Shown in pieces: positions 1,066 through 54,031 of a stretch of DNA of 61,782 nucleotides; the first letter of the stretch is position 1, and every line of letters starts with the position of its first letter. The translations under genes were made by a program, and so were the position numbers. Below the pieces are notes generated by a model, which was not told the origin of the DNA, ran no database searches, and saw nothing but the letters and a program-made list of their open reading frames with translations. The stretch is from Patescibacteria group bacterium (GTDB lineage: Bacteria > Patescibacteriota > Patescibacteriia > 2-12-FULL-60-25): positions 1-61,782 of the forward strand of contig JARGGJ010000009.1 in assembly GCA_029210915.1 (NCBI GenBank), given 5' to 3'.

Positions 1066-2427
1066 TTAGGCGCTTGCGCGCAAAAGAACTTTTTGGCGAA
1101 CAGAGGTTTTGGGGACGATGCTTTTCATCATCGCCTCGGCTTCGGATAGCTGGGGCGCTATGGTAAAGGCGGTGATTTTTCCTTGCTCCAAACAGCCTGC
1201 GTTAGCCAGCACAAACCCCGGCCTTGAACCGCCATCCCATGGACGGCAGTTGAGATAATTGTAGGTTAGCTCGTCAAAGCTCAGGTCTTCAGGCAAGCCA
1301 TCCAAGTTCTCCATCATAACAGCGGCTTTACCTCCGCCAAAACGGTGCATAGCCTCGTAGCAAACCGCCATGGCATAGTCTGATGCCGAGGAACGAGCGT
1401 TGTACTCCAAGAGGAAGATGTGCACATTGCCTTCATAATTTACCTTTAAGAAGTCGATGCAAGCTGTTCTCGGCATGAGCGCTCCGTAGCCATTCTCGTG
1501 AGCCGCGTTGTTAAACGGTGTTACAATCTCAACTACTTGCCGTTCAACGTGTGGGTCCAGAACTTGTTGGCCTATTGCAACCGAATTTCCATTGTGAGCA
1601 TCATTTTGAATACTCATCTTGGTAAAGTACAAGGGTGTCCAACCGTTATCATCAAAGACTATTTTTACGGAACAGATCTCCGTATCAAAACTGTCTGCCG
1701 GATATCCTGCATCCATAACCAAACTGCAACCCCGGTATTCATCCAAGAACTCCCGAAGCTCATCATCGGGTGTATCCTTGTTTAACCGCATGATGCCAAC
1801 ACCGCCATCATAATCGTGCACTTTAAGGTATACGATATCTGTTGGTACAACGGCATTAGCCTCGAGCAGAACCCTCTCCCGAGCTTGCATTACACTTTCA
1901 AATTCTGCGGACACCAACTCCCATGGCGAAAAAGCTCTCCGCATGTTCAACTCATCACCCAAACAACGAAGCCGGTACTTATCATCAAACATGTCGGCAA
2001 TGGTGGGCTGTGCAGTGCTGATTTGGTGCCAGCCGAGTCCCAGCTTTTCCACAAAGTATTCCATGTATCTGGTAAGATAAAAATCCAAAGGCATTCCGGA
2101 GTGCACGGCTTGGCGAATCATTTCCATGCAACCGAGCGCTTGATCTTGTTCGATTAGCGCTCGAGCAAGGTTATTTCCTCTAACCAAAACAAGCTCTTGC
2201 GCCCCAATGCCGGCGTGATACTTAAGAAACTTGTGGTTTGCCACAATGTTACTTCGGCTCCGTTCATCTTCATAGCCCGAAAATACAATGCCTCTTTGTA
2301 CCAGCGCACGGCTGGCATAAGATCCAAGGCCTTTGATTTTGCTAAGGAACACGCCAAACGGGCTCATATCATGAATGCGTACCCGCTCTTTTGCGATCTC
2401 CAGCCACGGATTTGTACTGCGAAGCAT
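1066..2427 (-). CDS. ATP-grasp domain protein (possible carboxylate-amine ligase)
   Basis: A 453-residue protein. The last half has the ATP-grasp pattern: a lysine strand (DIVYLKVHDYDGGVGIMRL), a hinge-like strand with conserved acids (EICSVKIVFDD), and the metal-binding strand FLLEYNAR, where Glu and Asn normally bind Mg-ATP. The N-terminal half resembles a pre-ATP-grasp domain. Such enzymes join a carboxylate to an amine through an acyl phosphate; the substrate here is unknown. The ATG at 2427 is chosen because AAGAGGT lies six bases before it; an upstream in-frame TTG has no such site. The gene stands alone, with a consensus promoter, a long leader holding a terminator-like hairpin, and its own terminator. 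Confidence 0.7.
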   Translation of the reverse strand: MLRSTNPWLEIAKERVRIHDMSPFGVFLSKIKGLGSYASRALVQRGIVFSGYEDERSRSNIVANHKFLKYHAGIGAQELVLVRGNNLARALIEQDQALGCMEMIRQAVHSGMPLDFYLTRYMEYFVEKLGLGWHQISTAQPTIADMFDDKYRLRCLGDELNMRRAFSPWELVSAEFESVMQARERVLLEANAVVPTDIVYLKVHDYDGGVGIMRLNKDTPDDELREFLDEYRGCSLVMDAGYPADSFDTEICSVKIVFDDNGWTPLYFTKMSIQNDAHNGNSVAIGQQVLDPHVERQVVEIVTPFNNAAHENGYGALMPRTACIDFLKVNYEGNVHIFLLEYNARSSASDYAMAVCYEAMHRFGGGKAAVMMENLDGLPEDLSFDELTYNYLNCRPWDGGSRPGFVLANAGCLEQGKITAFTIAPQLSEAEAMMKSIVPKTSVRQKVLLRASA

Positions 2428-2465
2428 GCTTTTACCTCTTGTCACGGTTTTGGTTGTCAAAGTCC

Positions 2466-2552
2466 AAAAAAAAAGACCTCACAATGTGGGTCATTCCTAA
2501 TTCTCCAAATTTGAAAAACTAAGAATGACGTTCATTAATAATGAGGCCTAGG
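2466..2552 (-). promoter_or_regulatory. Leader hairpin with U-tract (candidate attenuator or riboswitch)
   Basis: In the minus-strand leader CCTCA pairs with TGAGG and CATTCTTA pairs with TAGGAATG inside it. The outer stem is followed by TC and nine T. The structure lies between the promoter and the Shine-Dalgarno of the ATP-grasp gene, the position of a conditional terminator. No known riboswitch class is recognised. Confidence 0.6.
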
Positions 2553-2603
2553 CTAACAATAATTTTTGATCCGGTCAAACTGTTCATAAAGTTAACAAAA
2601 TAA

Positions 2604-2632
2604 ATTTTATAAGTTTTTTAATACGCTGTCAA
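2604..2632 (-). promoter_or_regulatory. Promoter of the ATP-grasp gene
   Basis: On the minus strand TTGACA (2632-2627), a 17-base spacer and TAAAAT (2609-2604) form a near-consensus sigma-70 promoter. The leader to the ATG at 2427 is about 170 nt. Confidence 0.75.
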
Positions 2633-2678
2633 ATCTACTGTGCTATACTATAGTCATCTTACTATTCAGTTCTTCAGG

Positions 2679-2772
2679 TTTATAAAGTTAAAAGTTTATA
2701 AAGTTCATAAAGGTGATTTATTTAGCCTCGTATAGTTTATAAACTTTACAAACTTTCAACTTTATAAACTAA
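2679..2772. repeat. TTTATAAAGTT-type intergenic repeat
   Basis: Inverted and direct copies of GTTTATAAAGTT/AACTTTATAAAC fill this spacer. Related copies occur at 3956-3985, 34801-34831, 40751-40812 and 55724-55825. The 3' part is nearly identical to the sequence just before the gene at 3995. Confidence 0.75.
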
Positions 2773-2777
2773 TTTTT

Positions 2778-3602
2778 ATGCCACTTAAAGTTATCGCACT
2801 AGGAACGGGAATTTGTTCCAATGGATGTTCCACCGGGCCTCGCCGTTTCCCTCCGGGATTTTTAATTGAATACAACAACGAGCTTTTACTTTTGGATGCC
2901 GCCGAAGGCGTTCGTTATCGCATAGAAGACGAGGGTTACGACATTGGCAATATTGCCAACATAGCCTTAACTCACGTGCATCCCGATCACGCCGCTCTCC
3001 CGCAGTTGCTTCAAGCCAAACTCTGCAGAGTGCTTTGGGGCGATCCCAAACCAAAAATGAGGCAAGCAAAAGTTTATATGCACGAGGCTTCCGCGGATGG
3101 ATTTGAGGCGGTATGGAATTGGCATCACCCGGAGGCCGGCGGTAAATTAAATCACATGCCCGATAAATTCCAGTTTTCCGTGGAGCCAATCCGCAGCGGT
3201 TGGGAGCGTGAGGTAATCCCCGGGTTAACACTAAAACCTTTTGGCGTTTATCATGGTTTTGGCCAACACCCAGCTCTAGGCTTCCGTGTCGAAACACCCG
3301 AAGCAACCATCGTCTACACCGGTGATGCCGGCATTACAGATTCACTCTTCACCTCCGTCGCAAATGCGGATCTCCTCATTGCCGATGCCAGCACGCGCAT
3401 TGGCCAAAGCTACACTGCCGGCTATGGCCACATGGCTCCAGACCAATGCGGAATGCTTGCTGCACGCTCCGGGGTTAAAGAACTTTGGCTCACGCATTAC
3501 ATGGGTATCGATGAACCTGCCGCCATGGAAGCCGAGGTTCGCAAACAGGGTTTTAACGGAGCGCTAAAGATCGCTACAGATGGATTGCAGTGGAGTAAAT
3601 AA
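2778..3602 (+). CDS. Metallo-beta-lactamase-fold hydrolase, RNase Z-like
   Basis: 274 residues. The metal-binding motif THVHPDH lies at residues 65-71. Later ligands are the Asp of YTGDAG, the His of GYGHM and the His of LTHY. The N-terminal LGTG and the overall order match the RNase Z/ElaC and arylsulfatase-like branch of the superfamily, so tRNA 3' processing or phosphodiester hydrolysis is plausible. The flexible exosite of classical RNase Z is not obvious, so the specific role is left open. The ATG at 2778 follows the AT-rich repeat and has no Shine-Dalgarno. Confidence 0.8.
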   Translation: MPLKVIALGTGICSNGCSTGPRRFPPGFLIEYNNELLLLDAAEGVRYRIEDEGYDIGNIANIALTHVHPDHAALPQLLQAKLCRVLWGDPKPKMRQAKVYMHEASADGFEAVWNWHHPEAGGKLNHMPDKFQFSVEPIRSGWEREVIPGLTLKPFGVYHGFGQHPALGFRVETPEATIVYTGDAGITDSLFTSVANADLLIADASTRIGQSYTAGYGHMAPDQCGMLAARSGVKELWLTHYMGIDEPAAMEAEVRKQGFNGALKIATDGLQWSK

Positions 3603-3660
3603 CAAATAGCAAATAGCAAGAGTAACTTAAGAAACTCTTGCTATTTGATATTTGCTATTG
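3602..3660. repeat. AGCAAGAGT-type palindrome
   Basis: AAATAGCAAGAGT and ACTCTTGCTATTT form a long inverted repeat directly after the stop codon. Related copies lie at 30081-30147 and 30965-31032. It could also act as a transcript end. Confidence 0.75.
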
Positions 3661-3702
3661 AAAATTCAGAATGAATAGAGAATATGCTATAATCAACACA
3701 TT

Positions 3703-3948
3703 ATGTTTACAAGAATTTTAATAGGTTTAATTTTGGTCGCGGTTGGTGCTCTTATGGTCATCAAAACCAATAAGTTCCAAGATTTTTTTGGCGAGATGGC
3801 CTGGACTTACAAATATCTCGGCTCTGGCGGCACTAGGTTGATGTACAAGTTTATCGGTCTTCTGATGTGCTTTGTCGGATTCATGGTCATGACCAATCTC
3901 TGGACAGCCTTTTTAAACGCCACACTCGGCTCATGGCTCATCCGCTAA
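3703..3948 (+). CDS. Small two-helix membrane protein, unknown
   Basis: 81 residues with two hydrophobic helices (about 4-20 and 48-68) around a polar loop containing WTYKYLGSGGTRLMYK. No family is recognised. A TATAAT box at 3688-3693 ends nine bases before the ATG, so the mRNA would carry almost no leader. It precedes the methyltransferase gene by 46 bases and may be cotranscribed with it. Confidence 0.7.
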   Translation: MFTRILIGLILVAVGALMVIKTNKFQDFFGEMAWTYKYLGSGGTRLMYKFIGLLMCFVGFMVMTNLWTAFLNATLGSWLIR

Positions 3949-3955
3949 AATCATC

Positions 3956-3985
3956 CAACTTTACAAACTTTCAACTTTATAAACT
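3956..3985. repeat. AACTTTATAAAC-type repeat
   Basis: A short copy of the family seen at 2679-2772. The stretch running from AACTTTACAAAC to AACTTTATAAACT is repeated almost exactly, again just before a start codon. Confidence 0.7.
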
Positions 3986-3994
3986 CTACCCCGT

Positions 3995-4573
3995 ATGAAA
4001 GGTTTTGTATTAAAAAGCGGCACCGAACTTATAAATCCATTTAAGTTATTGGAGCGAGTTGGTATCCAACCCGGTTGGCATGTTGCCGATTTGGGTTGCG
4101 GTTCCACAGGGCATTTTGTAATTCCTGCCGCTCAACTTATTGGCGCCGATGGCATCGCTTACGCTGTCGACATCCGCCGTGATGTTTTAGAACATCTGGA
4201 TAAAGTCATAAAACAAGAACAGCTATACAACATAATCACCGTCTGGTCTGACATGGATGTTTACGGCGCGACTCGTATCAAAGATGGCTCACTCGATCTT
4301 TGCCTGCTTATTAATAATCTTTTTTTATCCCAAAACAAACCCGCCTTAATCCGCGAGATGGCACGCCTCACCAAACCCGGCGGGCGAATTGTTGTTGTCG
4401 AGTGGAGAGCCGAAGAAACTCCCATAGGCCCGTCTATCGATCATCGCTTAACCATCGAGCAAAGCAAATCTATTTGTGAATCCGAATACCTGGAATTTTT
4501 AGATGAAATAGAAGTAGGTCATTCTCATTACGGATTAATGTACGAACGCACGCAGGTAAAAGTCACCGGTTGA
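3995..4573 (+). CDS. Class I SAM-dependent methyltransferase
   Basis: 192 residues. Motif I is VADLGCGSTGHF (about 30-41), followed by the acidic end of strand 2 in YAVDIRRD (about 60), DMDVYGA (motif II) and LTKPGGRIVVVEW (motif III). This is the Rossmann fold of UbiE/Methyltransf_11 enzymes, which move a methyl group from S-adenosylmethionine. The acceptor cannot be deduced. The stop is TGA, one of the cases showing that TGA is a stop in this genome. Confidence 0.8.
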   Translation: MKGFVLKSGTELINPFKLLERVGIQPGWHVADLGCGSTGHFVIPAAQLIGADGIAYAVDIRRDVLEHLDKVIKQEQLYNIITVWSDMDVYGATRIKDGSLDLCLLINNLFLSQNKPALIREMARLTKPGGRIVVVEWRAEETPIGPSIDHRLTIEQSKSICESEYLEFLDEIEVGHSHYGLMYERTQVKVTG

Positions 4574-4620
4574 CACGTTTCTTGATAATTGCTGGTTTTT
4601 AATGCAAGCTAACAATCAAT

Positions 4621-5028
4621 ATGCAAAATCTTTTAACTTTAAACTTCTGGTTCAGTCAATACCCGCCGGCTTTAACACCATGGGCCACACGCATTTTACT
4701 TGTAGTTTTTGTAGCCATCTTTTTGGTTGGTGTAATAGCAAAAATCTATTCAATCAAAACCAAACTCGAAAAATGGAATCGCCGTGCCATCGACAAATCC
4801 GCCAGCCTGTTGCTTTCCATGGGTGCGTTCGGCCTACTTTTATTTGTCTTTGCCTACGAACAAATTCCGGTTCTTTCGATGCGCGCAGGATATATTCTCT
4901 GGCTCCTAATTACAGCTGTCTGGATATACTTCCTCTACAAATTCATCGCAGTCGAGATCCCCAAACAACGCAAACTAAAACAAGAACGCGAACACGAAGA
5001 CAAGTGGCTCCCTAAGCCTAAAAAGTAG
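4621..5028 (+). CDS. Membrane protein, unknown (three predicted helices)
   Basis: 135 residues with three hydrophobic segments (about 22-44, 62-82 and 90-111) and a highly charged C-terminal tail (KQRKLKQEREHEDKWLPKPKK), probably cytoplasmic. No family is recognised. It is chosen over an overlapping frame because it has the membrane-protein pattern and a sensible ATG. It lies between the methyltransferase and YraN genes on the same strand. Confidence 0.7.
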   Translation: MQNLLTLNFWFSQYPPALTPWATRILLVVFVAIFLVGVIAKIYSIKTKLEKWNRRAIDKSASLLLSMGAFGLLLFVFAYEQIPVLSMRAGYILWLLITAVWIYFLYKFIAVEIPKQRKLKQEREHEDKWLPKPKK

Positions 5029-5088
5029 ACTTTATTTGCTTTTAGCGTTCGCCTTCCTGAACTCGTTTCAGGAACTCATCAAGTTACC

Positions 5089-5484: not shown

Positions 5485-5712
5485 CATCACTCTTGAGGCA
5501 GGCATGAAGCTTGTTATCAGGGGTAAAAAATTGTCACCTCCAACCCCAGAAAGGGCAACCACCAATGCGTGTGCGTACCCGACGACAATCGTAAACAACG
5601 CCGCCCCCCGACGGAAACGTCACAACAACAGCCCTAAGGGCCAGAAAGAGAGGTGCACCTTGAAGGTTTACTAAGCCCCGCAGCCAATCAGGCTCTGGGG
5701 TTTCTTTTTTTT
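5485..5712 (+). ncRNA. Candidate short transcript A (small RNA or small-peptide mRNA)
   Basis: A strong promoter and a strong terminator bracket about 228 nt. One ORF fits inside: ATG at 5504 to TAA at 5674, a 56-residue basic peptide starting MKLVIRGKKL, preceded by a weak GAGG. Its composition does not look clearly protein-like. The motif GAGGTGCACCTTGA near the end recurs, with one extra A, in transcript B. It may be a regulatory RNA, a small-protein gene or the remnant of a cassette that lost its gene. Confidence 0.45.
5675..5712 (+). terminator. Terminator of unit A
   Basis: CCCCGCAGCC and GGCTCTGGGG form the stem, followed by TTTCTTTTTTTT. The boundary motif ACCTTGATT starts at the next base. 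Confidence 0.85.
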
Positions 5713-5785
5713 ACCTTGATTCTCTGGATTCGCCACACGACTACGCTCGAGGCCTCTGACGGGATTAGCAGGATTGTTGCTAAGT
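5713..5785. repeat. ACCTTGATT boundary element following unit A
   Basis: It begins ACCTTGATT and continues with CGACTAC, CTCG, GACGGGATT and AGGATTGTTGCT. The same ordered motifs follow the terminator of candidate RNA D in reverse orientation at 52879-52800. Two promoter-terminator units 47 kb apart thus share a downstream border. Confidence 0.6.
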
Positions 5786-6109: not shown

Positions 6110-6150
6110 AACCTTGATTTCCGCCATAGGCGGATCTGCTTTTAGATGAA
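6110..6150. repeat. AACCTTGATT boundary element, left end only
   Basis: AACCTTGATTTCCGCC is followed by GGCGGATCTGC and a GATGAAA segment, matching the left half of the element at 38717. No matching AATCAAGGTT right end is found. The rest of the spacer to queA is AT-rich TTATTATT repeat. Confidence 0.6.
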
Positions 6151-6271
6151 AGCTTGATTACAAACTTTAATTACCTAGATTACTATTTAACAACATCTAC
6201 CTAAAATCAGTGAATTGAACTTTATTATTTATTATTTATTATTTGTACTTTATTATTTTTTTCGCCGCAGG

Positions 6272-35549: not shown

Positions 35550-36098
35550 CTAAAGCGTAGCAATCAGTTCATCCAACTTTGCTTTAAAAGTCTCAAGATC
35601 CAAGTCATTTTCGATTTTATGGTTTGCTTTGGCGGCTACGCCGGCTATGGTTGCCTCGGTTTCCCTTTCGCTCATGGCTAAGAAATCCTCCCAGGTCATA
35701 TCACCCTCGCCGGCTTTTTCGTTTCTGTTTTTAAGCCGTTCGAATCTTATCTTGGGTGATGCCCAGATTTCGACTAAATGAAACTTTTCATCTTTTTGCA
35801 GATCTTCGATATCCTCCATACGGCGAATACCATCAACAATAACAATGTTCGCTGTAGATGCCTTAACTTGCGCCTCCATAACATTTGCAAGCGCATCTTG
35901 CCCAAAAGCTTGTCGGATGGCCGTAGAAGCTTTGATTAGGTTATCTCGGGATTTTTCTTTATACAATCTTTTTAAAACATCGGCCAAAATATCGCTGAAA
36001 GTAAATATTTCCGCATTTGAATTTTTAGCAAGTATATCAGCCGCCGTACCCTTACCGGCACCGGCTTGCCCAACAAAACCTATTATAATTTTCGGCAT
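35550..36098 (-). CDS. Small P-loop kinase (nucleotide or dephospho-CoA kinase-like)
   Basis: 182 residues. The P-loop is GFVGQAGAGKGTAA (7-20), followed by FTFSDIL, an Asp in IVIVDGIRRMEDIEDL and an arginine-rich lid RFERLKNRNEKAGEGDMTWEDF. This is the adenylate/dephospho-CoA kinase-like branch found in archaea and CPR. The substrate is uncertain; its place next to dut suggests a (deoxy)nucleotide. The start is the family-typical MPKIIIGFVG. Confidence 0.75.
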   Translation of the reverse strand: MPKIIIGFVGQAGAGKGTAADILAKNSNAEIFTFSDILADVLKRLYKEKSRDNLIKASTAIRQAFGQDALANVMEAQVKASTANIVIVDGIRRMEDIEDLQKDEKFHLVEIWASPKIRFERLKNRNEKAGEGDMTWEDFLAMSERETEATIAGVAAKANHKIENDLDLETFKAKLDELIATL

Positions 36099-36248
36099 AA
36101 TTCGTTAATTATCAACTAATGAAACTCAACTGTCAACAAGAGTATCTTGTATCTTGTATCTAGTATCTAGCAGTGTGATATGCAATTAATTTAGCGCAAA
36201 AAAACATCTACGCCACTGCAAAATACAAGATGCTAAATACAAAATACT

Positions 36249-36276
36249 AAAAAACAGCCCTTAGGCTGTTTTTTTG
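36249..36276 (-). terminator. Terminator of rplA
   Basis: ACAGCC and GGCTGT form the stem with A- and T-runs on both sides. Confidence 0.8.
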
Positions 36277-36277
36277 T

Positions 36278-36970
36278 CTAGAAGTTTGATGTATCCATCG
36301 GGATTCCCGGGCCCATGCTTGTTGTGAGCGTGATGCTCTTTAAGTATGCGCCTTTTGAGGATGATGGTTTTTGCTTTTTAATTGAGTCCATTAAAACCTG
36401 TAAATTTTCCTTTAAGCCGGCTGTGTCCAAACTTGTTTTACCGATAATTTGGTGCACTATACCCGTGTCATCATTTTTATAAGCAACTTTACCTTTCTTC
36501 AAATCCTCGATCATCTTAGTGACGTTTGTGCCTACGGTATCTGTCTTTGGGTTAGGCATGAGGCCTTTGGGGCCAAGAACGCGAGCAAGCTTGGCAAGTT
36601 TAGGCATCATATCAGGAGTTGCTACCGCAACATCGAATTCAATAATACCTTTTGTCGAAATTTCTGCAATTAATTCCTCACCTCCAACAATATCCGCCCC
36701 CGCAGCTTTTGCCTCCTTCTCTTTATCAGCTGCAACAAAAGCGGCAACTTTACGTGTCTTACCAATATCATTTGGGAAAACAAGAGTAGCGCGTACAATC
36801 TGGTCGCTCTTTTTAGGGTTGATACCCAAACGAACATGTACCTCTACGGATCCGGTAAACTTGGTGGTTGCTGTCTTTTTAACAAGTTCCAACGCCTCAT
36901 CGGGGTTATACAACTTGCCTGTTTCGATCAATTTCTGCGCTTCAATAAAGCGCTTGCTATGTTTTGGCAT
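36278..36970 (-). CDS. rplA: 50S ribosomal protein L1
   Basis: 230 residues, normal length. L1 forms the mobile stalk at the tRNA exit site and often represses its own operon. Signatures are the start MPKHSKRFIEA, VEVHVRLGINPKKSDQIVR, LARVLGPKGLMPNPKTDTV, KGKVAYKNDDTGIVHQIIGKTS and SITLTTSMGPGI. Normally rplK directly precedes rplA; here the two are separated by 2.5 kb with a gene on the opposite strand, and rplA has its own promoter. Confidence 0.97.
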   Translation of the reverse strand: MPKHSKRFIEAQKLIETGKLYNPDEALELVKKTATTKFTGSVEVHVRLGINPKKSDQIVRATLVFPNDIGKTRKVAAFVAADKEKEAKAAGADIVGGEELIAEISTKGIIEFDVAVATPDMMPKLAKLARVLGPKGLMPNPKTDTVGTNVTKMIEDLKKGKVAYKNDDTGIVHQIIGKTSLDTAGLKENLQVLMDSIKKQKPSSSKGAYLKSITLTTSMGPGIPMDTSNF

Positions 36971-37061
36971 AAACTTTAGAAGGCCGGCTTATTCAGCCAA
37001 TACCTCCGTGGTGCAGACGCCCCGAGCAAAGTCGATGGGCTTCCACGTTAGCTTAATAATG
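36971..37061 (-). promoter_or_regulatory. rplA leader, candidate autoregulatory RNA
   Basis: About 90 nt between the predicted transcription start and the ATG. It holds GGCTGAATAAGCC (stem-loop), ACGGAGGT and a GC-rich segment GCTCGGGGCGTC. L1 and L10 operons commonly carry autoregulatory leaders; which protein would bind here cannot be told. Confidence 0.4.
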
Positions 37062-37066
37062 GGCTT

Positions 37067-37095
37067 AATATAGACTAAAGATAAGAAACCGTCAA
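37067..37095 (-). promoter_or_regulatory. rplA promoter
   Basis: Minus strand TTGACG (37095-37090), 17 bases, TATATT (37072-37067). Confidence 0.75.
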
Positions 37096-37115
37096 GTCTA
37101 TAACTTATTGTCTTG

Positions 37116-37227
37116 AACCTTGATTTACTTGATTTTTGCTCACAATTAACATGATTATTTGATTTTACTTATCAAGTCATTAAAAACAGATAATCAAGGC
37201 AATCCTTTAATCGAGCGAATCAAGGTT
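37116..37227. repeat. AACCTTGATT/AATCAAGGTT element, left of the 37388 cassette
   Basis: 112 bp with perfect 10-base inverted ends AACCTTGATT and AATCAAGGTT. The interior contains TGCTCACAATTAACATGATTA, which is repeated within the element at 38717-38865 in the same orientation. The two therefore flank the gene at 37388 as long direct repeats with inverted ends. Confidence 0.8.
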
Positions 37228-37238
37228 CAGACAAAGGG

Positions 37239-37267
37239 TTGACAAAACCGCTAAAATATGCTAAATT
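37239..37267 (+). promoter_or_regulatory. Promoter of the 37388 cassette gene
   Basis: TTGACA, 17 bases, TAAATT, starting 12 bases after the AATCAAGGTT end. The leader to the ATG is about 115 nt. Confidence 0.75.
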
Positions 37268-37387
37268 ATCGCCATTCATCCATTTCCGGATGGAGCCGTT
37301 TCTGTGCGGATCACAGAGCTGTCTCATGGCTAAGTTCAGGCGTTGGTTTATACTGCCGCCTAACATGCCAAGGATGGAGATCGTACA

Positions 37388-38599
37388 ATGACAAGTGAGA
37401 AGAAAGATCACAGTGTAGCATCATACGCCTTTGGAACATTTCAGTTGTGGCGCGATGGCGTATTAGTCGAAGAGCGAGCCGAACCTCCGAAGCAGATTTT
37501 GCAACATTGTGAAGAAGTTCATGAGGTTGATGAGCCGGGTTGGGTATACGTGGATCCAGGACCTCTACTCATTTGCCAACCTCGCTTGTTCGTGGAGCTG
37601 GAACCAATGCCACCACTTGAGGAAAACGAAAAAGCAGAGGAGATCTATAAGTGTCGTGAGTATGGTGATGATGGATTCCTGCTCCGGCCAGACATGCCGA
37701 TTCCGGGAATCCAAATGGATCCCGACACTGGCCACGAATCCCATGAAGAGGATGATCTGCCGTACATGAACCTCGAAGTTGAGGTTTGTGATGGTGCTGA
37801 AGATGTGGGTAGTCCCGAAATTGATGAAGATTGTGGAAGTGGTCGTCAGCAAGATCCACCCAAGCCCAAGCGCAAGCAACGCGCTGCGAAGCAAGACCGC
37901 CTCACAACCGATCAGCTCGCCGAGCTGCTCGCTATCGACAAGCGTGTCGGTTTGCGTAGCCAGCTCCAACGCATGCTCCACGCGCTCAATTCCGGCGGGC
38001 TAGCTCTCGAAGCTCCTGCCGAGGATATCGCCATCAACTACCGCTGTGAGTGGTGGGAAGTGGAACGTCAGCGCCAAGCCCTTGTGCTTTGGCAAAAAGG
38101 TATCGGCCGGGCATTGGGTTACTCGAGTTACCAAAAGTATCTCGCCAGCATCCCTGGAATTCCAGGACGTCTGCGCATGAAAAACGGCAAGTTCAATCGC
38201 CTGGTGCTTGTCGATACCCGAGCAGGCCTGCAGAAGCTCTGCCATCTGGCTGGGGTTTTCTATGATAGCACCGAGCATCTAGACGCTGATTCGTCAGTGC
38301 GTTGGATGCGTTGTCAGGATGGTCGACGGTACCAGAACGACACTATGATTGCCGCCGACTGTAGTTTTCAGGATGACGAAGACGGCCTGAGTTTGTTCGA
38401 GGGAATCTGCCTTTACATGCAATTCCCTCAGGTTCTTTGTGAATGTTTTGTGATACTTTTCACCGAACCACCAAACACCAGCAGCAACTCAGCTGACGTG
38501 GCTATTCTCTCGATCACAGAACTTGGTGTCAAAGTCGGTAGGACACGCTATGTCACAAACGATAAGTACATGGGCGTAGCCTCCAAGCTGCGTCTGTAA
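37388..38599 (+). CDS. Unknown protein, 'ALGY-YLASIP' family, copy 1
   Basis: 403 residues. The N-terminal half is acidic and probably disordered (residues about 70-165), followed by a basic stretch PPKPKRKQRAAKQ. The conserved C-terminal domain has RQALVLWQKGIGRALGYSSYQKYLASIP, RLVLVDTRAGLQKLCHLAGV, SVRWMRCQDGRRYQ and LFEGICLYMQFPQVL. The gene at 53387 shares this order. The conserved Trp, Arg and Cys suggest a folded binding or catalytic domain; the function is unknown. AAGGA and GGAG lie upstream of the ATG. It lies on the strand opposite the ribosomal operon it interrupts, between two AACCTTGATT elements. Confidence 0.75.
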   Translation: MTSEKKDHSVASYAFGTFQLWRDGVLVEERAEPPKQILQHCEEVHEVDEPGWVYVDPGPLLICQPRLFVELEPMPPLEENEKAEEIYKCREYGDDGFLLRPDMPIPGIQMDPDTGHESHEEDDLPYMNLEVEVCDGAEDVGSPEIDEDCGSGRQQDPPKPKRKQRAAKQDRLTTDQLAELLAIDKRVGLRSQLQRMLHALNSGGLALEAPAEDIAINYRCEWWEVERQRQALVLWQKGIGRALGYSSYQKYLASIPGIPGRLRMKNGKFNRLVLVDTRAGLQKLCHLAGVFYDSTEHLDADSSVRWMRCQDGRRYQNDTMIAADCSFQDDEDGLSLFEGICLYMQFPQVLCECFVILFTEPPNTSSNSADVAILSITELGVKVGRTRYVTNDKYMGVASKLRL

Positions 38600-38615
38600 A
38601 CTCCAACTCAAACAC

Positions 38616-38652
38616 AAAGCGCGTGAACTCACTCTCGAGTCACGCGCTTTTC
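38616..38652 (+). terminator. Terminator of the 37388 cassette gene
   Basis: AAAGCGCGTGA and TCACGCGCTTT form an 11-base stem, followed by TTCT. Confidence 0.8.
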
Positions 38653-38716
38653 TAATTGCGAACCAGGATGTACCGGGATTATCGTTCAATGATTTACAGG
38701 ATTACTATATTGTCTG

Positions 38717-38865
38717 AACCTTGATTTCCGCCAAAGGCGGATCTGCCTATGGATGAAAACATGATTTTCGCTCACAATTAACATGATTACTGTATGAATT
38801 TAATTTATTAATACATTAAGTAATCAAGTTAAATATGGTTTTAAATCGGTTTGAAAATCAAGGTT
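38717..38865. repeat. AACCTTGATT/AATCAAGGTT element, right of the 37388 cassette
   Basis: 149 bp with the same 10-base inverted ends as 37116-37227 and the same TCGCTCACAATTAACATG core. Its left half (TTTCCGCCAAAGGCGGATCTGCC) also matches 6110-6150. Confidence 0.8.
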
Positions 38866-38878
38866 CAAGATTGATGGC

Positions 38879-39361
38879 TCAGTCTTTCTTCTGTTCCTTC
38901 CTAATTATAACCCAGTAATACAAAAATAGGGGAATACCTACGAATAAAAACGACAAGTCGCGGACTGCGGATTTTTGATTGCGGATTGCGCGCATCTCAT
39001 CTTCGCTTAATTGATTCTTTTCACACTCGGCAATTCTTGTTTGGTAATCCGCATCATCAGGTTCTTTTGGAATCATGAAAGCACAAGGCGGATCGCGATA
39101 TTCATTTAAATCAGCTTTTGGAAAAACCCAAGTCTTAAGACCAAGGTTAACCAAATCGGCTGTCGAAAAAACAACCATCATTAAAGCGATCAGTGAAACC
39201 AAGTAAAAGTATACGGTTTTAATAATCTGCGTTTTAGACATTTGCATAGATTTGAAATCATTATCATCGCGAAGCAAATAAACAAGCCCAACGATGAGCA
39301 TTATAAATATTATGAATATACTTAAAGGAAAAAACATGGATAACATATCGATTGCGTTCAT
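38879..39361 (-). CDS. Membrane protein, unknown (three helices, DUF5671-like)
   Basis: 160 residues from ATG 39361. Three membrane helices (about 7-30, 48-72, 137-156) surround an outer loop with PKADLNEYRDPPCAFMIPKEPDD and two cysteines. The segment KTVYFYLVSLIALMMVVFSTADLVN resembles CPR membrane proteins annotated DUF5671; this is a weak match from memory. TATAAT at 39373-39368 ends six bases before the ATG, so the message should be leaderless. Confidence 0.65.
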   Translation of the reverse strand: MNAIDMLSMFFPLSIFIIFIMLIVGLVYLLRDDNDFKSMQMSKTQIIKTVYFYLVSLIALMMVVFSTADLVNLGLKTWVFPKADLNEYRDPPCAFMIPKEPDDADYQTRIAECEKNQLSEDEMRAIRNQKSAVRDLSFLFVGIPLFLYYWVIIRKEQKKD

Positions 39362-39367
39362 GACATT

Positions 39368-39373
39368 ATTATA
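39368..39373 (-). promoter_or_regulatory. -10 box of the 38879 gene (leaderless)
   Basis: Minus-strand TATAAT, six bases before the ATG at 39361. Confidence 0.65.
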
Positions 39374-39480
39374 CCTCATGAACGCAAAAATTAATAAATA
39401 ACAAATAATAAATAATAAAGCGAGCAGAGGGATTAATATTTATTATTTGTTATTTGTAAATTTATTATTTGAAGTAGTAT

Positions 39481-39510
39481 AAAAAAATCGGGCACTAGCC
39501 CGATTTTTTT
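39481..39510 (-). terminator. Terminator of rplK
   Basis: ATCGGGC and GCCCGAT around ACTA, with A- and T-runs, overlapping the rplK stop codon. Confidence 0.85.
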
Positions 39511-39931
39511 ATACTACTTCCAGTCCCATCTGCCTCGCTGTACCCTCTACCATCTTACATGCCGACTCGATTGTTCGGCAGTTAAGATCGGGCATCTTCT
39601 TTTCGGCGATTTCTTTGATTTGTGCTTTGGTAACCTTGCCGATCTTTTCGGCTAAGGGTTTGCCCGAGCCTTTTTTGATACCGGCTGCTTTTTTAAGCAT
39701 TTCAGCAACAGGGGCGACTTTTAAGATAAAGTCGAAAGTTCTGTCCTCATATACTGTGAGTACACAAGGAACAACTTCGCCCATACGGTCGGCGGTAGCG
39801 GCATTAAACTTTGAGCAAAAGTCTGCAATGTTTAAGCCGTGCGGGCCGAGAGCTGTTCCAACCGGAGGAGCAGGGTTTGCCTTGCCACCTTCGATCTGCA
39901 GCTTGATAAGTGTTTTGATTGGTTTGGCCAT
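39509..39931 (-). CDS. rplK: 50S ribosomal protein L11
   Basis: 140 residues, normal. L11 forms the GTPase-associated centre with 23S rRNA. Signatures are [38 protein letters not shown], the [10 protein letters not shown] strand and the C-terminal rRNA-binding [21 protein letters not shown] end ([16 protein letters not shown]). It follows nusG and secE in the usual order but is not followed by rplA. Confidence 0.97.
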
Positions 39932-40092
39932 AAATATAACGTCCCGCGTCTATACGTCCCGCGTCCTACGTCTTTTTGATAACAACGTGGGACGATAGTA
40001 CGTGCGACGAGCGACGAATTGGTTAGTTATAAACGTTTCCAGATGTGATGAGAAGCAGCCTACCGGCCGTCACATCTGTCGCACTTACAACA

Positions 40093-40190
40093 TAATCGTT
40101 CATAACGTTAATCCGTTCATAACGAGTTAAGTGGAAAATTACCGGACAAACATCGTTAACTCGTTATAAACGTTACGAACGTTATAAACG
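40093..40190. repeat. AACGTTATAAACG-type palindrome
   Basis: CGTTCATAACGTTAATCCG and CATAACGAGTTAA are mirrored by TTAACTCGTTATAAACG and ACGAACGTTATAAACG. It separates rplK from nusG. Confidence 0.7.
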
Positions 40191-40193
40191 TAT

Positions 40194-40742
40194 TTATATC
40201 TTCTTGATTTGTGTAAAGTCTAATTCTAAAGGTGTTTCGCGGCCGAACATTGAAACCAAGATTTTTACCTTACCGCGTGCTCCATCAATCTCGATAACCT
40301 TGCCTTCGAATCCTTTAAACGGCCCATCTCCAATTTTTACCGGTGAACCTGTTTGGATATCTATTTGATATGCCGGCGCTTCCTCGGATCCTGAGCGTTT
40401 AACCAAGTAATCTACTTCTTCTTTGGAAAGAGGGGATGGCGTTGTGCCGGTGCCAATAAATCCTGTAACGCTTGGTGTGTTTCTAACAATGTACCAAGAG
40501 TCATCCGTCACAATCATCTCAACCAATACATAACCCGGGAATATCTTTTCTTCAACCAATTTACGCTTACCGTTTTTGATCTTGATCTTCTTTTCAACCG
40601 GAACCATTACATTAAAGATCTTATCTTGCATTCCAAAAGAATCGATACGGCGTTTTAAACTGTCTGTAACAGCTTCTTCGTATCCCGAATAGGTATGAAT
40701 GGCATACCAGCGGCGACCAAGGTCTAGGGTTTGTTTTGGCAT
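40194..40742 (-). CDS. nusG: Transcription termination/antitermination protein NusG
   Basis: 182 residues, normal. NusG binds RNA polymerase and couples it to ribosomes or Rho. The NGN domain has RWYAIHTYSGYEEAVTDSLKRRI and FPGYVLVEMIVTDDSWYIVRNTPSVTGFIG; the KOW domain has VKIGDGPFKGFEGKVIEIDGARGKVKILVSMFGRETPLELDF. Upstream lies secE, as in most bacteria. Confidence 0.97.
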   Translation of the reverse strand: MPKQTLDLGRRWYAIHTYSGYEEAVTDSLKRRIDSFGMQDKIFNVMVPVEKKIKIKNGKRKLVEEKIFPGYVLVEMIVTDDSWYIVRNTPSVTGFIGTGTTPSPLSKEEVDYLVKRSGSEEAPAYQIDIQTGSPVKIGDGPFKGFEGKVIEIDGARGKVKILVSMFGRETPLELDFTQIKKI

Positions 40743-52322: not shown

Positions 52323-52419
52323 AACCTTGATTCGCATGATTATTTCGATTAACTCGATTATCTATATATTTACAGAACACGCAATAAAGCCAAATCATGA
52401 TAATCTAAAAATCAAGGTC
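52323..52419. repeat. AACCTTGATT/AATCAAGGTC element next to candidate RNA C
   Basis: 97 bp; ends AACCTTGATT and AATCAAGGTC are nearly perfect inverted repeats. It contains GCATGATTATTTCGATT and AATCATGATAATC. It abuts the T-run of the RNA C terminator. Confidence 0.75.
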
Positions 52420-52800: not shown

Positions 52801-52879
52801 TAGTACAAGTAACAATCCTACAAATCGGTTTGCAATCCTGTCGGAGATTACGAGTGTAGTCGAGTAGAAAATCAAGGTA
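52800..52879. repeat. ACCTTGATT boundary element after candidate RNA D
   Basis: In minus orientation it begins ACCTTGATT and continues with CGACTACACTCG, GACAGGATT and AGGATTGTTACT, the same ordered motifs as 5713-5785. Confidence 0.6.
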
Positions 52880-52917
52880 AAAAAAAGAAAACCGCCCAAG
52901 CTTATTAGCTGGGCGGA
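52879..52917 (-). terminator. Terminator of candidate RNA D
   Basis: Minus strand CCGCCC and GGGCGG with further pairing (AGCT..AGCTT), then TTTTCTTTTTTT. Confidence 0.85.
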
Positions 52918-53386: not shown

Positions 53387-54031
53387 ATGTCACTCAAAGA
53401 TTTTCAAGACGCACGTTTGATGGGTAGTGATTCGGTGGTTTGGTCGGAACACTATCGTCAGGCTCGGATTCTGTGGGATAAAGGATTTGGTAAGGCTCTT
53501 GGATATGATGATTTCGAGCACTACCTGGCAAGTATACCGCCAATCGGCACTTCACTGTTTTTGCCAAACGAAGCATTCCCTCATTTGGTATTGGTAGAGG
53601 GTAGGCTAGATATTCGCAGAGCGGTTGATTTTTCAGGAGTATCTCCGATAACCTGGAATCATCCCGACGGTAGAACCGTTCATGAGTATCCCGAAGGACC
53701 CCCACGGTTTCCAAAGAAAACAAATTCCGGGGTACGATGGATGCGCTGTAGTTGTGATATTGAAACATGGGAGCTTAATTTCAGTGAATACTCAGGAGGT
53801 TTCTTTAATAGAACAATAGGACTAGATGCGGTAGAAGGGATTGCATTCTATGTCCAACATCCTCATATCTTCAAGCAAATTAGGGTTGGATTTATGAATT
53901 CAACAAGAGATCCCAGTCACTTTTACTACTTAAAAGAAGAGCAACAAAACATAATTGTTGGTTTTGATGATATTGACTTCAAGACTCTCACCAGGTTTCC
54001 TGTCCGACCCACGGGTAATTCCTGGCTCTAA
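53387..54031 (+). CDS. Unknown protein, 'ALGY-YLASIP' family, copy 2
   Basis: 214 residues, corresponding to the C-terminal half of the protein at 37388. Shared blocks: RQARILWDKGFGKALGYDDFEHYLASIP (copy 1 RQALVLWQKGIGRALGYSSYQKYLASIP), LVLVEGRLDIRRAVDFSGV, SGVRWMRC and AVEGIAFYVQHPHIF. It lacks the acidic N-terminal region. AAAAAGGA lies before the ATG. It is soluble, without signal peptide. The function is unknown. It has its own promoter and a modest terminator, and neighbours two candidate structured RNAs. Confidence 0.75.
   Translation: MSLKDFQDARLMGSDSVVWSEHYRQARILWDKGFGKALGYDDFEHYLASIPPIGTSLFLPNEAFPHLVLVEGRLDIRRAVDFSGVSPITWNHPDGRTVHEYPEGPPRFPKKTNSGVRWMRCSCDIETWELNFSEYSGGFFNRTIGLDAVEGIAFYVQHPHIFKQIRVGFMNSTRDPSHFYYLKEEQQNIIVGFDDIDFKTLTRFPVRPTGNSWL

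What the first reader, a model, noticed from the sequence alone, without database searches (positions are those of the whole stretch)
37116..38865. Cassette bounded by AACCTTGATT elements inserted between rplK and rplA
The gene at 37388 lies between two elements (112 and 149 bp) with identical 10-base inverted ends and a shared core of about 20 bases in the same orientation. It has its own promoter, Shine-Dalgarno and terminator and lies opposite to the L11-L1 operon. In most bacteria rplK and rplA are adjacent; here rplA has its own promoter next to the left element. Together this suggests a mobile or exchangeable gene unit.
Basis: partly seen in the sequence, partly recalled or inferred. Interest (0 to 1): 0.78.

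Follow-up and report, generated by a model that had tools for sequence, protein, structure and literature searches.

The report
Nuclease-linked repeats flank an acquired gene
A gene of unknown function that this tiny bacterium recently gained beside its ribosomal genes sits between two short copies of a repeat found in many bacterial phyla; the repeat's longer copies usually carry one small nuclease-like gene, which suggests an overlooked kind of mobile DNA.

Summary
Two elements (37116-37227 and 38717-38865) flank a 403-aa ORFan with its own promoter. They are not private ends of one cassette: each is a complete short copy of a dispersed inverted-repeat element (84 exact end motifs in this 1.46-Mb genome, 0 in the reversed control; 24 and 7 in two congeners, 0-1 in six). 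The same element (GTCTGAACC...GGTTCAGAC) occurs in at least ten phyla. Almost all long copies (about 450-500 bp) in the genus carry one GxxExxY gene (PF13366, PD-(D/E)XK), modelled as a Cas4/RecB-like nuclease. The gene was probably gained in this lineage: all eight congeners lack it. Where the site is held, three have nothing there, three a different gene, and the closest comparable one (G004) only one decayed arm of the same element. A membrane-protein gene conserved in the genus also lies between rplK and rplA. Distant homologues of the ORFan lack the elements. Best reading: gene insertion or recombination at a resident element of a GxxExxY-linked, MITE-like family. That the elements moved the gene is unproven. 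I found no description of the family in the held literature.

The parts
37116..37227 (.). Element e1: complete 112-bp short copy, hybrid of subfamily A arm (promoter side of gene 37388) and subfamily B arm (rplA side)
38717..38865 (.). Element e2: complete 149-bp short copy, subfamily B/B, with a nested TCCGCC...GGCGGA repeat
37139..37158 (+). Shared 20-base core GCTCACAATTAACATGATTA in e1 (an exact second copy lies in e2, 38770-38789); the only exact pair among 57 element sites
37388..38599 (+). Inserted accessory gene, 403 aa, no Pfam/NCBIfam/PDB match; C-terminal domain shared with scattered Patescibacteria proteins; G+C 0.49-0.57 against 0.38-0.45 around it
37239..37267 (+). Promoter of the inserted gene (TTGACA-17-TAAATT, extended TG), starting 12 bases after the end of e1
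37376..37379 (+). Shine-Dalgarno GGAG
38618..38651 (+). Terminator-like hairpin AGCGCGTGA-loop-TCACGCGCT-TTT
   Evidence: by eye; loop too long for the scan
36278..36970 (-). rplA (L1)
37067..37095 (-). rplA promoter, also present in congeners without the insert
38879..39379 (-). Membrane-protein gene conserved between rplK and rplA in the genus
39509..39931 (-). rplK (L11)
6110..6230 (.). Another, incomplete element copy (left end clear, right end not found; right boundary approximate)
52323..52419 (.). Another element copy (right end imperfect, AATCAAGGTC), upstream of a gyrB-like gene
53387..54031 (+). Paralogue of the C-terminal domain of gene 37388 (214 aa), about 1 kb from the 52323 element; no element on its other side

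Best explanation
The two AACCTTGATT elements are short, gene-less copies of a dispersed mobile inverted-repeat element. Its full form is two roughly 45-50-bp arms (GTCTGAACC plus three or four GATT boxes about 9-12 bp apart) around a single GxxExxY gene, predicted to be a Cas4/RecB-like PD-(D/E)XK nuclease. The nuclease is inferred to spread the elements by cutting and recombination. The gene at 37388 is a separate accessory gene with its own promoter and terminator. It entered this lineage between the conserved membrane-protein gene and rplA, where one subfamily-B element already lay (G004 keeps one arm of it). It most likely entered by recombination at that element, which left related copies on both sides. 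Shown: the family, its distribution, the GxxExxY cargo, subfamily matching of arms and protein, and the empty or one-arm sites. Inferred: nuclease activity, the mode of element movement, and that insertion of the gene went through the element.
For: Family: 84 exact end motifs against 0 control in this genome; 24, 7 and 0-1 in congeners; the same full pattern in at least ten phyla. Cargo: 7 of 8 ORF-sized (444-504 bp) arm-to-arm units in own, G008 and G004 carry GxxExxY, one of them as a pseudogene; a third own copy sits between related ends. In other phyla GFQE/GFPE-type GxxExxY genes are flanked by box arrays, 12/19 on both sides against 0/10 for other types. GxxExxY subfamilies A and B match arm types; complete short copies are A/A 6, B/B 11, hybrid 4. 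Structure: pLDDT 85.6; best match the Cas4-like SSO0001, E 2.9e-4, Z 9.4; conserved D73, E83-x-K85 and Q97-x3-Y101. Insertion: gene absent in 8/8 congeners; G004 has one decayed B-type arm (alignment score 45 against a shuffle maximum of 43; controls 16-20) at about the same distance from the rplA -35 box. The two flanking elements share an exact 20-mer; near pairs share such matches 3/10 against 15/1586 for distant pairs, P=1.4e-4. C2 parallel: GDPD-element-ORFan-nearly identical element-polA here; one arm plus a different small gene in G004; a 47-bp gap in G003.
Against: No target-site duplication was found, so movement is not demonstrated directly. The elements' interiors are variable, and at one orthologous site (YchF/lipoprotein) two species hold different subfamilies, which fits replacement as well as insertion. 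e1 being an A/B hybrid and e2 B/B does not follow from one simple crossover. The G004 arm is decayed and one could argue for gene loss there. The gene's homologues elsewhere occur without elements. Genomes with elements but no detected GxxExxY exist (G067, G070).
Confidence: 0.5

Rival explanations
1. Coincidence: the gene inserted by an unrelated route at a tolerant spot upstream of rplA, and two mobile elements independently inserted in the two intergenic spaces.
For: The elements are common and mostly intergenic. Near pairs are only twice the random expectation. Three congeners have a different gene at this spot without elements, and the gene's homologues elsewhere have none.
Against: The two elements share an exact 20-base core found in no other of 57 sites, and G004 has the same arm type at the site. 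Near pairs as a class are more alike than distant pairs (P=1.4e-4).
Confidence: 0.28
2. A true exchangeable cassette: the elements are the ends used by a recombinase or nuclease to move the enclosed gene as a unit, and cargo is swapped between units.
For: Element-ORFan-element units on C49, C2 and C1, whose genes are all absent from congeners. One 450-bp unit in G008 holds a different small ORF in place of GxxExxY (L235). Between GDPD and polA the gene differs between species.
Against: Both flanking elements are complete in themselves. Most elements enclose nothing or lie beside core genes. No second genome was found with gene 37388 between elements, and no circular form is known. One flanked gene (C2, 270 aa) has divergent homologues in G004 and G001 and is not strain-specific.
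Confidence: 0.13
3. The elements are not mobile: they are structured regulatory or terminator repeats (REP-like) that arose in place.
For: They are partly palindromic and intergenic; in other phyla the arms within one element match each other better than shuffled arms.
Against: Patchy presence in the genus (84 against 0), identical termini across phyla, nested and hybrid copies, and gene-bearing forms. In this genome the two arms of one element are no more alike than random arms (z 0.5). No Rfam family at gathering level.
Confidence: 0.05
4. The ends are DNA-uptake signals, since Neisseria uptake sequences contain GTCTGAA.
For: Shared GTCTGAA core (uptake sequence recalled from memory; papers holding the string surfaced).
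Against: The rest of the 12-mer (ATGCC) is absent, copies occur as long paired structures with a nuclease gene, and copy number is tens rather than thousands.
Confidence: 0.02

Closest known systems
Bacterial MITEs, e.g. Chunjie of Geobacter uraniireducens (review PMC10969869)
   Same: Short non-coding inverted-repeat elements, tens of copies, intergenic, variable length
   Different: No target-site duplication seen; the associated long form carries a GxxExxY nuclease-like gene and no recognised transposase; conserved boxed arms; one family across at least ten phyla. I could not read the Chunjie sequence paper.
GxxExxY protein family (TIGR04256 / Pfam PF13366 PDDEXK_3)
   Same: The cargo gene is a clear member (E about 1e-37 to 1e-40)
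   Different: I found no description of this family as cargo of an inverted-repeat element in the held literature; mainly the GFQE/GFPE-type members show the arms here
PD-(D/E)XK homing endonucleases (such as I-Ssp6803I, from memory)
   Same: Single small PD-(D/E)XK nuclease gene as the only cargo of a spreading element
   Different: Intergenic, inverted-repeat arms, many gene-less copies, no intron or intein host
Integron gene cassettes (attC)
   Same: Imperfect palindromes of 60-150 bp flanking single genes
   Different: No GTTRRRY core at the ends, elements are dispersed rather than arrayed, most carry no gene

Membership tests
MITE | Short, non-coding, multicopy with terminal inverted repeats | tested here: met
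MITE | Target-site duplication | tested here: not met
   151 complete copies, no excess at any offset or length tried
MITE | Related autonomous element with the same ends | tested here: inconclusive
   GxxExxY-bearing forms with the same arms exist; the gene is nuclease-like, not a known transposase, and autonomy is not shown
GxxExxY / PDDEXK_3 | Match above curated cut-off | tested here: met
PD-(D/E)XK nuclease | Fold and D...(D/E)xK motif | tested here: met
   (Z 9.4 to SSO0001, 104 residues, rmsd 4.9)
PD-(D/E)XK nuclease | Cleavage activity | not testable with these tools
   needs protein
Integron cassette (attC) | RYYYAAC/GTTRRRY core sites | tested here: not met
   ends read GGTTCAGAC; the fourth base of GTTCAGA is C
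Integron cassette (attC) | IntI integrase in the genome | not tested
   -
Composite transposon / exchangeable gene cassette | Gene and both ends gained or lost together at several sites | tested here: inconclusive
   gene absent and only one decayed arm in G004; only one genome carries the unit
Neisseria-type DNA uptake sequence | ATGCCGTCTGAA 12-mer | tested here: not met
   ends read ATTGTCTGAACC

The most novel reading that the evidence does not exclude
A previously undescribed class of minimal mobile element, present in at least ten bacterial phyla, consists only of boxed inverted-repeat arms and one Cas4/RecB-like GxxExxY nuclease. It produces MITE-like gene-less copies and can swap its interior for other genes by recombination, so that pairs of copies turn bystander genes such as 37388 into exchangeable units.
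Probability: 0.3. Interest if true: 0.85.

Novelty: new variant of a known kind. Interest (0 to 1): 0.6.

Why it matters
GxxExxY proteins are annotated in bacterial genomes with no known role. The association found here gives them a concrete testable one: the enzyme of a dispersed repeat family seen from Patescibacteria to Bacteroidota and Gammaproteobacteria. A mobile element that works with a lone PD-(D/E)XK nuclease and no transposase would be unusual. It would also help explain how very small Patescibacteria genomes acquire single genes next to essential operons.

Tried and rejected
Target-site duplications: none. Function of gene 37388: no Pfam, NCBIfam, PADLOC or PDB match, one weak PHROG hit only; AlphaFold without an alignment failed (pLDDT 34); no viral relatives. 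Viral vehicle for the elements: one contig among 2.9 million, so phages are not the usual carrier of this exact pattern. Literature by sequence string, by GxxExxY and by MITE plus Candidate Phyla Radiation: nothing relevant; subscription journals are not held, so absence is weak evidence. Four-helix-bundle (23S rRNA IVP) genes were considered as a second cargo; they are flanked by other repeats. Integron and uptake-sequence readings rejected on end sequence.

Full report
What is there. The two elements exist as described. Between them lies a 403-aa gene on the plus strand with a TTGACA-17-TAAATT promoter starting 12 bases after the end of the left element, a GGAG ribosome site and a hairpin terminator. 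Its G+C (0.49-0.57) exceeds that of its surroundings.

The site. rplK and rplA are separated in the genus by a membrane-protein gene (window 38879-39379) as well, and rplA there has its own promoter and leader. Gene 37388 is absent from all eight congeners. In G001, G003 and G007 nothing lies between the membrane gene and the rplA promoter. In G005, G002 and G006 a different gene (MHTLAVIKP... in two of them, a relative in the third) with its own terminator lies there, without elements. In G004, the closest relative for which the site is held (membrane protein 81% identical), there is no gene, only 'AATTGTGAGCGAAGATTAAGCTTAATTAAGGCTCAA'. This is a decayed right arm of the same element type (alignment score 45; shuffled maximum 43 of 1000; controls 16-20), ending about the same distance before the rplA -35 box as element e1 does here. 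In G008 the site could not be found (84% complete).

The elements. The end motif TGAACCNTGATT occurs 84 times in this genome against 0 for the reversed control, 24 times in G008, 7 in G004 and 0-1 in the other six congeners, so the family probably expanded recently and patchily. Each arm is GTCTGAACC followed by three or four GATT boxes about 9-12 bp apart. In other phyla the two arms of one element resemble each other more than shuffled arms (z 7.2); in this genome they do not (z 0.5). No target-site duplication was detected.

The cargo. With an arm profile, 7 of 8 ORF-sized arm-to-arm units (444-504 bp) in this genome, G008 and G004 contain a GxxExxY gene, one of them broken; the eighth holds a different 113-aa ORF. 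The third copy of this genome (C44) has a related end type, ACCTTGATT. In other phyla, GFQE/GFPE-type GxxExxY genes have box arrays on both sides in 12 of 19 cases and on at least one side in 17 of 19 (a few of these 19 are from this genus). Other types in the same set have both in 0 of 10 and either in 2 of 10 (P = 0.001 and 0.0004). Members from Chlorobi, Ignavibacteria, Bacteroidota and Desulfobacterota are 58-78% identical to the first of the set. Protein subfamilies A (71-84% within) and B (71%) match the arm types. Among complete short copies, 17 of 21 classifiable ones are homotypic and 4 are hybrids, including e1. The model of one member (pLDDT 85.6; the other four models of the run were much less confident) is a PD-(D/E)XK fold closest to the Cas4-like protein SSO0001 (Foldseek E 2.9e-4; VIA Z 9.4, rmsd 4.9 over 104 residues), with conserved D73, E83-x-K85 and Q97-x3-Y101. 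Activity is inferred, not shown.

Is it a cassette? Against: each flanking element is complete; most elements enclose nothing and lie beside core genes; homologues of gene 37388 in five other genomes have no elements; a congener gene uses the same site without elements. For: element pairs within 2.6 kb, leaving out GxxExxY units, number 10 against 5.1 expected (P = 0.02). Such near pairs share a 20-base or longer exact match in 3 of 10 cases against 15 of 1586 distant pairs (P = 1.4e-4); these include the 104-base pair on C2 and the 20-base pair here. Of four single genes between two element sites, three are absent from all eight congeners and the fourth has divergent homologues in G004 and G001. 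On C2 the order here is GDPD-element-283-aa ORFan-element-polA. G004 has a different 100-aa gene and one arm next to polA, and G003 has a 47-bp gap. This is consistent with recombination at resident elements, but does not show that the elements move the genes.

Interior replacement. Between YchF and a lipoprotein gene both this genome (L076) and G008 (L230) carry a GxxExxY element with conserved outer flanks, but of different subfamilies (B and A). This fits replacement of one element by another, or repeated insertion at one point.

Verdict. The mobile-cassette part is only weakly supported. The more interesting result is the element family and its GxxExxY gene.

Noticed in passing
L100 2350-2800, L093 670-1320, L101 100-640: Genes for the 23S rRNA-intervening-sequence four-helix-bundle protein (PF05635) in this genome are bordered by short iterated repeats that differ at each locus (CGTCCTACGTC, GGTCCTGGGTACAT, GATTAAGGATAAAT). 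At the rnpA-yidD site this genome has such a gene where G008 has a GxxExxY element.
   Followed up: partly
window 5710-5770 and 52820-52881; L280 around 1200-1760: A related element type with ACCTTGATT ends lacking GTCTGA; a third GxxExxY gene of this genome (C44) sits between such ends.
   Followed up: partly
L096, L097, L090, L081 inside elements; window 38727-38745: Other repeats are nested inside the elements: a long hairpin starting GTAGGGATAGATCTTGTGTCTATCC and a TCCGCC...GGCGGA palindrome.
   Followed up: no
window 36970-37067 and L039-L067: A leader with GTGGGAG...ACCACGG precedes rplA in nearly all relatives; it looks like an L1-binding autoregulatory leader. No Rfam match reached the gathering score in 36000-40500.
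   Followed up: no
window 37388-38599 and 53387-54031; L034-L037: An uncharacterised accessory protein domain (consensus LWxKGFGRALGY..YLASIP..W(I/M)R.QDG) scattered in Patescibacteria at different loci, several copies as stand-alone units with their own promoter-like sequence.
   Followed up: partly
L079 (C11) 2229-5032: Paralogous pentapeptide-repeat-type genes alternate with elements around an hflX-like GTPase gene; an element between such genes also occurs in G004 (L242).
   Followed up: no
L140, L168, L173, L180: In Bacteroidota, Thiotrichaceae and Desulfobacteraceae the elements also occur as clusters of two or three copies close together.
   Followed up: no
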